A program made the translations under genes and the position numbers. Positions 41,223-45,851 of a stretch of DNA of 58,600 nucleotides are shown here, in pieces. The first letter of the stretch is position 1. Every line of letters begins with the position of its first letter. The stretch is from Chromera velia. Lineage: Eukaryota; Sar; Chromeraceae. The stretch is taken from NCBI GenBank assembly GCA_018398765.1, contig JAHBMJ010005748.1, positions 8,303 through 66,902 on the forward strand, written 5' to 3'. The notes under the pieces are model-generated. The model was given only the letters and a program-made list of their open reading frames with translations, ran no database searches and was not told the origin of the DNA.

Positions 41223-42525
41223 TTACTCCCTCTTCAGGGCCTCGGAACCTCTGTACCACAAGAGGAGTACGATCACGGGAAGAAAGAAGGAGGCGATGGA
41301 GGCCCAAAAAGCGAGGGGCTCGACGGTCATCTCGACTCCCAGAGAGAGAGCCTGGGTGGGCAGGCTCTCCAAAGCGGAAGGGTCCTGAAGGCAGACAGGA
41401 AAGGCAGTTACACTTCATCGCAATCACACAGACTGCTAGATACACACTGTCCAGAGAAACATTCATTATGACAGATGCGCTCGGAAGGTTCCAGAACGCA
41501 AAACCCCACGCTTGACAATGCTGGGCCAGGGGCACAAGAATCAACTTAGCTCGCTTCTCAGTTTGACGCAGTTTTGTGTGCTGCCGGCAAACAGAGGGCC
41601 TAACGGTCATTTCACACCGGGGTGTATTTTCATGTGGGTGTGGCAAGGGACTCGGCTCATTTGAATACTTCTTCGGTTCCAGCCTGTGCAGTGCACCAGC
41701 TAGCTGCTTTCTGCTGTGGCCTTTTCTGTTTTTTTCCGTTTTAACGTTCGGGAAGACGAAAGGTGCTTTGTAGCGGTGTCACAAAGAAAGAGGATCGAAG
41801 GAAAAACGACGAAGAAATGAAAAAAAAAGCCCCTCTCTCACTCACTCGCTCGCTCACTCACTCACTAACGCACGCGAGGATAGAGTGCACTCACGCCCTC
41901 ACTCCATTTGGCTCACTTGCACTCCCACTCACTGCCTCACTTATAAGCGAGAGACGCAGCAAAAGGAAGCAGAAGGGAGAGGCACAGGAAACTTGTCTGC
42001 TTGCCTGACCGAGGGATGCGAGAAATCTAGTGCTGTTGGCTTCATCACTCTTTCAGACAACTCAGACGAAGAGAGGGAGAGACGAAGGCAAAGGCAAAGA
42101 AAGGAAGGGGAGCACTGAAAAATCTCAAAAACTTGATTCAAGGCACTTAACAGTCAGTCTCCCATTCGCACAAAGATGATCGGAATCAAGAAAGTCACTG
42201 GTTGCTGAGAGAAGCGCGTGGATTGCTCACGTTCACGTCCCACACACACAGTCCTACGTGCAAGGTTGTACTCAGCTGACAGGCGAATGGAGAGACCCGA
42301 ACAAGGATCTCACATCCTCAGGTGAATCGTTCGTTCAAGGAAGAATCAGGAACTCACCTGCAATTGCGGAAGCTGGTCAAAGAGGGCCTCATGGGCATTC
42401 ATGGAGGAGATGGGCGTCCGTTGCGGGACTCTAGACAGCAGCCTCGCCCCGCTGCTGCTAGAGACTGACGGGACAAATGCGGAGACGGCCGCAAAGCACA
42501 CAAAAGCCAAAACAGCGCGAAGCAT
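41223..42525 (-). CDS. psbM: Plastid-targeted photosystem II subunit PsbM-like protein (nuclear-encoded, 109 aa)
   Basis: Exon 1 is 42358-42525 (56 codons) and exon 2 is 41223-41384 (53 codons plus TAA), joined in phase 0 by a GTGAGT...CTTCAG intron. The N-terminus is a hydrophobic signal peptide (MLRAVLAFVCFAAVSA) followed by FVP and a Ser/Arg-rich stretch, the bipartite leader of secondary plastids. The last 35 residues, starting MTVEPLAF, form one transmembrane helix. They align without gaps to PsbM (34 residues in cyanobacteria): M1, V3, L6, A10, P18, L22, Y26 and E30 coincide. PsbM sits at the monomer interface of photosystem II in the thylakoid membrane. A further in-frame ATG lies 13 codons upstream, but this start leaves a clean signal peptide. 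The identification rests on a short protein; another one-helix thylakoid subunit is the alternative. Confidence 0.65.
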
Positions 42526-42628: not shown

Positions 42629-42778
42629 ATGGAATCATTCTCCAAGAAGTATTTAGGTCTCAGCCCGGAAGAATTGGGCTCGGCAGCTATATTAATATCT
42701 GGACTTGGCTTCATCCTCGCGGCCGTGTGTAAAATTTTGCCGTACGTGAGCGAGGCCCACGGGGCCCAGGAAGGATGA
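42629..42778 (+). CDS. Possible 49-residue single-helix protein
   Basis: The frame begins MESFSKKYLGLSPEELGS, then has a hydrophobic stretch (AAILISGLGFILAAVC), and ends in a short polar tail before TGA. An amphipathic N-terminus followed by one membrane helix is typical of small subunits of organellar membrane complexes. The same frame is open further upstream, across the PsbM start. I recognise no family, and a chance ORF is possible. Confidence 0.35.
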   Translation: MESFSKKYLGLSPEELGSAAILISGLGFILAAVCKILPYVSEAHGAQEG

Positions 42779-43291: not shown

Positions 43292-43844
43292 ATGAGGACC
43301 TTCAGCAGTTCTCTCTTCATTGCAGCGTCATGCGCATCTCTCTTCACCTCCCTGCATGCAAATGCGTCGACAGCTGCGGGGGCTCCACCGATCGTCCATG
43401 TAAGGGTCACATATGCACATGAATATCTATGTATCTGCACGCATGTATACAGGCATGCATGCCAGCATGCCTGCCTGCCTCCCTGTGGGCCCGTCTACCT
43501 AACAGGAGGCCAGTCTCATGACTGTGTGTCTTTGTGCCTCTGCCTGCTTGTTGGTACCTGCCTGCCTGCCTAGCTGCCGGTGGGCCTGAACGAACATGCA
43601 TGTATGTGCGCATGCACGCCTATCCAACTACCTTGCCCGTCAGCCTATCTGCCTGCTGACTTCTCTGCCCGTGTTTCTGCATGAACGCACGCATCTCTGT
43701 CTGCGTATCCTTTGTTGATCTGTCTGTTGAAAAGCACGCCTACCCACCTGCGTACTGAACTGCCTACGCAGGTGCCTATGTGCCTCCTCGCCTGTATGCC
43801 CGCCTGCGTGCCTGTATGCCCATCTGCTTGCTTGCCCGTCTGCC

Positions 43845-43885
<41 letters not shown>

Positions 43886-44088
43886 GCCTGCCTGCCTGCC
43901 TGCCTGTCTGTCTGTCTGTCTGTCTATCTGTCTGTCTGTCTGTCTGCCTGCCTGCCTGCCTGCCTACCTGCCTTTCTGTCTGTCTGTCTGTCTGTCTGAC
44001 TGTCTGCCTGCCTGCCTGCCTGCCTGTCTGCCTGTCTGTCTGCCTGTCTGTCTGTCTGTCTGTCTGTCTGCCTGCCTGTCTGTCTGTG

Positions 44089-44121
<33 letters not shown>

Positions 44122-45851
44122 GCCTGCCTACCTGCCTTTCTGTCTGTCTGTCTGTCTGTCTGACTGTCTGCCTGCCTGCCTGCCTGCCTGTCTGCCTGTC
44201 TGTCTGCCTGTCTGCCTGTCTGTCTGTCTGTCTGTCTGTCTGTCTGCCTGCCTGTCTGTCTGTCTGTCTGTCTGTCTGTCTGCCTGCCTGTCTGTCTGTG
44301 TGTCTGTCTGTCTGTCTGTCTGTCTTGTCTACTGCCTTCAAGCCTACGTACGTATCTGCTTGTGTGCCGTCTTCTTGCCTGCCTGCCTTCTTTCCTTCTA
44401 ACATGCCAAGATAGGACTCGAAGCCGAGATAGGACTCGGTGTTACGGTAGCGCTTCCTTGTGCGGGTCTCTTAACTAAGAAGGGGCCTTTTCTGCCTGAC
44501 CTCCTCCGTCTTCATTTATCTACTTTTCTTTCTTTCCAAGCATGTATTGATGTGTGCGTATGCATGCGTAGCGTGTGTGGAATGTATCCATGCGTCGTCT
44601 CCCTAGTGACTTACTTCATCCGTTGGTCAATGAATGCGCTTGGGTCTCTGAGCGCTTGGTTGCTTTTCACCTCGTATCGAATGCACAGATAGAATGTCTC
44701 CTGGATAGAATGTCTCGTCTCTTAGTGTGGGGATATGTGTGTCCCGGATCAACTCATCCTTCCTTCCTTCCTTCCTTCCTTCCGTGTCTGAGCGTTCCTT
44801 TGCGTGTCCCCCCCCCATAGATTGGTGTGCCCTCCCTCCCTCCCTCCCTCACTGCAGATGCCTCCATCAGATCTGGATCGGGATTTCGGGGAGACTTTGA
44901 AGGGAGAAAGGAAAGGGGGAAAGGCGAAGGAGGGACTTTTGTCGGGAGTCAGTTTCTTCTTCTCCCATTCCTCCCTCCCTCCCTCCTTCCCTCCCTTCCT
45001 TTCTTTTTGTTTTCTCTGTGATCCCATCTCTTTGACTGCCCTGCTTCTACCTTTCTGGGTTCGATTGTCTGATGTGCCCATGCATAAAAGAAAGCCCACA
45101 TCTCCTTGCCTTGCCACCAATAGATCGATCGGGACTCGGTCAGTCAGACTCACCCGTGTGGTGATACTGTCGATCATTCGATCATTTGTTTTTGTTTTCT
45201 TTTTTGGTTCAATTTCATTCATGCGGAACGAACACGTCGGACAGTCTCCCATTCACTGCCTCCTCTAATCCGGAGAGTGGAGCAGAGGGAAAAAGCCGAT
45301 AGGTAGGCACCTCCATCCATCCGCAAGATCACCCACCGCCTTCTCGATCGTTCGTTCCCATCTTCTGTCTGTCTGTCTTCACCCTTGCAGATTGTGCAGG
45401 GGCTCTTCAGAAGAATCTCAGGACCTCCAAAGAATGACCAGAGAAGCTTGGGGGAGAAGGGAGAGGGAGAGAACGCGCCTCTGCTTCCTGACAGCTTCTT
45501 CCAGGTAGGTCCCGCGGGATGAAGGACTGAAAGTGAAAGCCTCGCGAGAGTGACAATTTTTGTATCATTCAATTTTCGTGAGGTGCTTTCCATTTGAGCC
45601 GTCCGTCTTCTTCGGCAGGGGAATGCCGAAAGAACCACTAGTGAGTGCCTTTCTGTCATTCCCTTTGTGCATGCACCCGTCTTCTTCCTTCTTCTTCTTC
45701 TTCTTCTTTTCTTCCTTCTTCCTTCTTCCTTCTTCCTTCTTCCTTCTTCCTTCTTCTTCTTCTTCTTCTTCTTCTTCTTCTTCCTCTTCCTCTTCCTCTT
45801 CCTCTTCCTCTTCCTTCTTCCTCTTCTTCTTCTTCTTCCTCTTCCTCTTCC

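What the first reader, a model, noticed from the sequence alone, without database searches (positions are those of the whole stretch)
41223..42525. Nuclear, plastid-targeted PsbM split by an intron
A two-exon gene joins a secondary-plastid bipartite leader (signal peptide, then SAFVP) to a 35-residue membrane segment that aligns without gaps to PsbM at eight positions, including the mid-helix Pro and the following Tyr. PsbM is tiny and easily missed by annotation. A nuclear copy would document transfer of a photosystem II core subunit and the leader it acquired.
Basis: partly seen in the sequence, partly recalled or inferred. Interest (0 to 1): 0.8.

Follow-up and report, generated by a model that had tools for sequence, protein, structure and literature searches.

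The report
Missing photosystem II subunit in Chromera
A small nuclear gene of the alga Chromera velia, listed so far only as an uncharacterized protein, probably encodes PsbM, a photosystem II subunit that two published surveys reported as absent or lost in this alga.

Summary
The gene is real and the coordinates are exact. The spliced product (42525-42358 joined to 41384-41223, minus strand) is identical over 109 aa to UniRef A0A0G4IA12, "Uncharacterized protein", Chromera velia CCMP2878, also held from MMETSP. Single copy.

Pfam and NCBIfam PsbM models miss it. A PsbM profile made without it matches it ungapped by HHalign at 88% (full) or 92% (tail); the next of 650 hydrophobic frames in 258.6 kb scores 18%. 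But two of five fragments picked genome-wide for PsbM likeness score 89-90%, so similarity alone does not settle it. Adding the tail to a three-PsbM profile raises 11 of 11 red-lineage PsbM chains; shuffled tails raise 5, 0 and 0.

Two papers call psbM absent or lost in Chromera; one links this to monomeric photosystem II. Its PSI-BLAST cut-off was 1e-10, hardly reachable for a divergent 35-residue protein. Nuclear PsbM is known in red-lineage algae: a new member of a known kind that would correct a published loss. Protein evidence is lacking.

The parts
42478..42525 (-). signal peptide, residues 1-16 (MLRAVLAFVCFAAVSA)
   Evidence: translation; cleavage site before FVP judged by eye
42358..42477 (-). 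first part of plastid transit peptide, residues 17-56 (FVPSVSSSSGARLLSR...), end of exon 1
   Evidence: Phe at +1 is the recalled red-lineage transit-peptide motif
41385..42357 (-). 973-base GT-AG intron, phase 0
   Evidence: sequence; its exact removal gives the protein held from UniRef and MMETSP
41331..41384 (-). residues 57-74 (DPSALESLPTQALSLGVE), acidic end of the leader
41223..41330 (-). residues 75-109 plus stop: PsbM-like mature segment MTVEPLAFWASIASFFLPVIVLLLWYRGSEALKRE, one transmembrane helix

Best explanation
The gene encodes the photosystem II subunit PsbM of Chromera velia. It is transcribed in the nucleus and spliced once (sequence plus MMETSP match). A bipartite leader takes it through the secretory route and across the plastid membranes (inferred from the leader). 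It is processed near residue 74, and the 35-residue remainder inserts as a single helix with the acidic N-terminus on the lumen side and the basic RGSEALKRE end on the stromal side, where two PSII monomers meet (inferred from PsbM homology and recalled PsbM topology).
For: Exact spliced product in UniRef and MMETSP. The HHalign match of the PsbM profile to the full 109 aa is ungapped, in register with M75, at 88.3%; tail 92.2%. Next best of 650 hydrophobic Chromera frames 18.4%; 13 other small thylakoid subunits (recalled sequences) at most 7.3%. Shuffle nulls 0/1900 and 1/1900 at the tail's value, 10/20000 by HMM. The best of 177,635 distinct PDB sequences for the tail is a PsbM (8eqm), in register 3-29 to 3-29, though at E = 1; the other 22 hits are long G-protein-coupled receptors. 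Adding the tail to a three-PsbM profile raises 11 of 11 red-lineage PsbM chains (mean +3.7 bits) and lowers the other 26 of 26 PsbM chains. Three shuffled tails changed the same 11 by +0.3, -2.1 and -4.3 on average, raising 5, 0 and 0 of them, and in each of the 11 the real tail beat all three. The mature segment starts at residue 75; in six long red-lineage entries it starts at about 60-79. Single copy.
Against: No Pfam hit (tail, full length, exon 2) and no NCBIfam hit (tail, full length). The full-length protein scores only 6.7 bits with the 118-sequence HMM. The own-genome PF05151 search does not list this gene, while five short fragments reach 14.7-15.9 bits. Given to HHalign, those five score 89.9, 89.3, 68.2, 67.0 and 17.1%: two exceed the 88.3% of the full-length protein, none the 92.0% of this exon's frame. 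They match 12 to 24 profile columns, not the whole helix, and were selected from the whole genome for PsbM likeness, but they show that this level of similarity can arise by chance in 178 Mb. In the one-sequence PDB search no red-lineage PsbM reached E 10. 4 of 9 invariant positions of A2 differ (N4E, F14S, F21V, I24L). Red-lineage, Vitrella or dinoflagellate sequences could not be aligned directly. The 11 chains come from few species, and only three shuffles were run. One metagenome copy (P0004) seems to carry an extra CT in exon 2 that would break the frame. No protein evidence.
Confidence: 0.8

Rival explanations
1. It is a plastid-targeted single-helix thylakoid protein of another family (another small subunit of PSII, PSI or cytochrome b6f, or a lineage-specific one) that resembles PsbM by convergence of transmembrane composition.
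For: No curated PsbM model recognises it; 4 of 9 invariant PsbM positions differ; HHalign values near 90% also occur in two fragments chosen from the whole genome.
Against: 13 other small subunits (recalled sequences) score at most 7.3% with the PsbM profile. The PDB search with the tail returned a PsbM first and no other photosystem subunit up to E 10. The pull towards red-lineage PsbM is lost in two shuffles that hold all eight residues shared with the three PsbM proteins.
Confidence: 0.16
2. The frame is a chance or decaying feature: a hydrophobic open frame with leader-like look but no functional product.
For: One JGI contig (P0004) carries the same tail but reads as if a CT repeat in exon 2 were one unit longer, which would put the tail out of frame with exon 1.
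Against: Canonical splice sites, product identical to a predicted protein held also from MMETSP and EukProt, leader in frame across a 973-base intron.
Confidence: 0.04

Closest known systems
PsbM (PF05151, TIGR03038), cyanobacterial and plastid-encoded
   Same: 35 residues, one helix, ungapped register, M1, A10, P18, L22, Y26 kept
   Different: Nuclear with a bipartite leader and an intron; N4E, F14S, F21V, I24L; not found by the curated models
Nuclear PsbM precursors of red-lineage algae in PDB entries 4yuu, 7y5e, 8wb4, 9kqb, 8iwh, 9l5v
   Same: Entries of 101-130 residues with the PsbM part starting at about residue 60-79; the Chromera tail raises their profile scores
   Different: Each still scores 21-31 bits with the 21-sequence profile A2; the Chromera full-length protein scores 6.7 with a similar 118-sequence profile
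Nuclear psbM of Symbiodinium minutum (PMC4079212, passages) and of Dinophysis acuminata (PMC3017763, passages)
   Same: Nuclear psbM in alveolates
   Different: Sequences could not be retrieved here; Symbiodinium has four models, Chromera one copy

Membership tests
PsbM | Match to the curated PsbM models (PF05151, TIGR03038) over cut-off | tested here: not met
   No hit at E up to 10: Pfam for tail, full length and exon 2, NCBIfam for tail and full length. Control P0005 hits both. Accepted diatom PsbM chains (6j3y, 6jlu, 7vd5) also score only 14.4-17.6 bits with a cyanobacterial/green profile, so such models can miss known divergent members.
PsbM | Profile similarity to PsbM beyond local real-sequence and shuffle nulls | tested here: met
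   HHalign 88-92%, ungapped; next of 650 frames 18.4%; shuffles 0/1900 and 1/1900
PsbM | Similarity that stands out in the whole genome by sequence alone | tested here: inconclusive
   Five PF05151 fragments found genome-wide score 17-90% by HHalign; two exceed the full-length value of 88.3%, none the exon's 92.0%
PsbM | Residues shared with red-lineage PsbM | tested here: met
   11 of 11 chains raised by the real tail and higher than with any of three shuffled tails; indirect, alignments not seen, few controls
PsbM | All invariant positions of the cyanobacterial/green family | tested here: not met
   5 of 9 invariant columns of A2 kept
PsbM | About 35-residue mature protein with one transmembrane helix | tested here: inconclusive
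   Residues 75-109 hold one hydrophobic stretch, mean Kyte-Doolittle 2.09; the processing site is inferred
PsbM | Plastid import signal if nuclear | tested here: inconclusive
   Signal peptide plus FVP and S/R-rich stretch by eye; no predictor or localisation
PsbM | Position at the PSII dimer interface | not testable with these tools
   Needs a Chromera PSII structure or proteomics

The most novel reading that the evidence does not exclude
Chromera keeps a fast-evolving PsbM in a photosystem II that behaves as a monomer: its interface has changed so far that PsbM no longer holds two monomers together, so the protein serves another role (for instance in the PSI-PSII assembly seen after mild solubilisation), and the published reason for the monomer, loss of PsbM, is wrong.
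Probability: 0.3. Interest if true: 0.65.

Novelty: new member of a known kind. Interest (0 to 1): 0.5.

Why it matters
[quoted passage not shown] If this gene is PsbM, that loss falls and so does its part in the explanation, and other losses scored the same way in small subunits need re-testing; a possible PsbX turned up here in the same genome. It would also show that E-value cut-offs suited to long proteins can create false losses of 30-40 residue subunits.

Tried and rejected
Protein database searches with cyanobacterial and green PsbM did not bring me nuclear red-lineage PsbM: one search listed the best 120 of 1059, and the sequences printed look cyanobacterial or plastid; one search returned 53 proteins, of which I opened 8, which look cyanobacterial, plant or spurious. 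A direct alignment with Vitrella, dinoflagellate, diatom or cryptophyte PsbM was therefore not possible; the indirect profile test took its place. A search of this genome with one cyanobacterial PsbM (P0010) found nothing. The own-genome search with PF05151 gave five short fragments. I set them aside as PsbM because none covers the whole helix and none shows a leader in its own frame; a leader in another exon, as here, was not sought for them, except that by eye the C167 fragment lies just upstream of what looks like a kinase exon, so in an intron. The contexts printed for minus-strand matches are of the wrong strand; searches give the right frames. A weak second match of the protein at C1820 is low-complexity sequence reported with two stops. 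The opposite-strand frame next to exon 1 was tested as a small subunit: Pfam gave only a chance hit and its PDB matches are mostly accumulated weak hits to TALE repeats, so no identity is claimed. No structure was predicted, since a lone helix would not discriminate. PF00223 found no PsaA/PsaB in the held assembly, so the plastid genome seems not to be in it and absence of plastid psbM rests on the papers. A paper search for dinoflagellate PSII structures with PsbM found none.

Full report
What is there. On the minus strand, exon 1 (42525-42358) and exon 2 (41384-41223) are separated by a 973-base intron with textbook ends, CAG|GTGAGT and CCTTCAG|GAC, in phase 0. The joined product has 109 residues. 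It is 100% identical over its whole length to P0003, which UniRef names 'Uncharacterized protein ... Chromera velia CCMP2878', A0A0G4IA12, and which is also held from MMETSP and EukProt. The window is therefore a nuclear scaffold of Chromera velia; the size of the held assembly (177.8 Mb in 4040 contigs) is compatible with the published 193.6 Mb in 5953 scaffolds (PMC4501334, passages). MMETSP is a transcriptome resource, so its match supports transcription and this exact splice. A search of the held genome with the protein finds its two exons and one low-complexity match with two stops: one copy.

Leader. By eye: a signal peptide MLRAVLAFVCFAAVSA, then FVP at the expected cleavage point and an S/R-rich stretch, then an acidic run up to residue 74. 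The Phe at +1 is the motif I recall for red-lineage plastid leaders. No predictor was available, so targeting is inferred.

Is the tail PsbM? Curated models say nothing: no Pfam or NCBIfam PsbM hit up to E 10. The own-genome Pfam search lists five short fragments of 14.7-15.9 bits elsewhere but not this gene. Compared one to one, the best of 177,635 distinct PDB sequences is a PsbM (8eqm), in register, but at E = 1; the other 22 hits up to E 10 are G-protein-coupled receptors, and no red-lineage PsbM is among them. These results alone would not make a case.

More sensitive tests favour it locally. I built an HMM from 118 cyanobacterial and plastid PsbM proteins (of 122 in the box; P0001-P0004, which come from the Chromera locus, were left out). 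The 35-residue tail scores 12.1 bits, which 10 of 20000 block shuffles reach; the full-length protein scores only 6.7 bits, which 295 of 20000 reach. With HHalign and 21 of those PsbM proteins (A2), the full 109-aa protein matches at 88.3% and the tail at 92.2%, ungapped and in register with Met75. In 258.6 kb of Chromera DNA (the window and 20 stretches of 10 kb) there are 4762 frames of 30 residues or more, 650 of them hydrophobic; this exon ranks first by HMM (9.6 bits, next 8.5) and by HHalign (92.0%, next 18.4%). In shuffles of the tail within its three blocks, 0 of 1900 reach 92.2%, while one (89.9%) exceeds 88.3%; with M1 and P18 held, 1 of 1900 reaches 92.2%.

The limit of similarity. 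When this report was checked, the five genome-wide PF05151 fragments were given to HHalign as well: 89.9, 89.3, 68.2, 67.0 and 17.1%. Three of them also outscore this exon with the 118-sequence HMM (15.4, 14.8 and 13.4 bits against 9.6). They were picked from 178 Mb for PsbM likeness, match 12 to 24 profile columns, and none spans the helix or shows a leader in its own frame. But they show that a value near 90% can arise by chance somewhere in a genome of this size. The case for PsbM therefore rests on the combination: an expressed gene, a plastid-type leader, a tail that is one 35-residue helix starting at a Met in PsbM register, local nulls, and the kinship test below. For this reason I put confidence at 0.80, not 0.85.

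A test of kinship. I could not obtain the sequences of nuclear red-lineage PsbM, but eleven such chains are in the PDB sequence set, and their scores can be read. With a profile of three PsbM proteins (A5) these eleven score 18.0-33.2 bits. With the Chromera tail added (A6) all eleven rise, by 3.7 bits on average (for 9kqb from 27.3 to 35.0), while the other 26 PsbM chains all fall. Three shuffled tails were used as controls: one with M1 and P18 held, two with all eight residues that match the three PsbM proteins held. They change the eleven by +0.3, -2.1 and -4.3 bits on average, raise 5, 0 and 0 of them, and in each of the eleven the real tail gives the highest score. So the residues in which the Chromera tail departs from cyanobacterial PsbM are of the kind found in red-lineage PsbM. 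Limits: three controls only; the aligner put small gaps into the C-terminal ends of the control alignments, which may handicap them a little; alignments to the chains were not seen; profile A6 also let in three non-PsbM chains at E 1.1-9.5 and A9 two PsaI chains at E 0.83-1.1; and the eleven chains are not independent (6jlu, 7vd5 and 6j3y are all from C. gracilis and 8iwh from T. pseudonana; 8xr6 and 8wb4 are both from Chroomonas placoidea and 8xlp is Rhodomonas salina; 9kqb is given as C. roscoffensis; the sources of 4yuu, 7y5e and 9l5v are recalled or inferred). I did not check the organism of each of the other 26.

Architecture agrees. In six of the seven long red-lineage entries (101-130 residues) the PsbM part starts at about residue 60-79; the seventh, 6j3y (131 residues), extrapolates to about 43. 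Here the protein has 109 residues and the segment starts at 75. Of the nine invariant columns in A2 the tail keeps five (M1, A10, P18, L22, Y26) and changes four (N4E, F14S, F21V, I24L).

What it does. Most likely it is PsbM: a single helix inserted with the acidic end towards the lumen and the RGSEALKRE end towards the stroma, at the boundary between the two monomers of photosystem II. The gene and splice are shown at sequence level; the leader's function, processing, orientation and place in the complex are inferred.

Against the literature. The Chromera genome paper says psbM was found in Vitrella but is absent in Chromera (PMC4501334, passages). Sobotka et al. [quoted passage not shown] Their rescue search was PSI-BLAST against the predicted proteins with a threshold of 1e-10. 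A divergent 35-residue helix can hardly reach that: accepted diatom PsbM chains in the PDB (6jlu, 7vd5, 6j3y) reach only E 0.02-0.2 with a 21-sequence profile. Library searches for Chromera with PsbM or photosystem II (one search listed 20 of 203) and for the accession (none) showed me no title or abstract that reports a PsbM in Chromera; I read passages of only some of these papers, and most subscription journals are not held.

Open points. One metagenome protein (P0004, JGI, 1277-base contig) shares the tail, but its upstream part reads in another frame, as if the CT repeat near 41341-41350 were one unit longer; this would separate the tail from exon 1. It may be an assembly error or a variant; the contig could not be fetched. 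No protein evidence exists here.

A second case. The same genome holds an intronless 140-aa frame (G000:C3843:45640-46062) with a signal peptide, a lumen-type APAFA site and one helix (by eye), whose only Pfam hit is PsbX (E 0.0043, 17.5 bits; without the leader 0.0011, 19.4 bits; cut-off 25). PsbX too is on the published list of losses. PsbY and Psb30 gave nothing, and PetM and PsbI only weak matches in frames where I saw no leader; since this PsbM candidate is itself invisible to such searches, those blanks prove no absence.

Noticed in passing
G000:C3843:45640-46062 (+), locus L030 1249-1671: Intronless 140-aa frame with signal peptide, lumen-type cleavage site and one helix (by eye); only Pfam hit PsbX (17.5-19.4 bits, below the cut-off of 25). 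PsbX is reported lost in Chromera.
   Followed up: partly
42629-42778 (+): 49-aa frame with one strong hydrophobic stretch (MESFSKKYLGLSPEELGSAAILISGLGFILAAVCKILPYVSEAHGAQEG) starting 103 bases from the PsbM start codon on the opposite strand: a possible head-to-head small gene, no identity found.
   Followed up: partly
41341-41350 (-): CT repeat in exon 2; a metagenome copy (P0004) reads as if one unit longer, which would shift the frame between leader and PsbM segment.
   Followed up: no
43712-44414: Long repeat array that stays open in several frames (CLSVCLPACL... / DRQTDRQTGRQ...) beside the gene.
   Followed up: no
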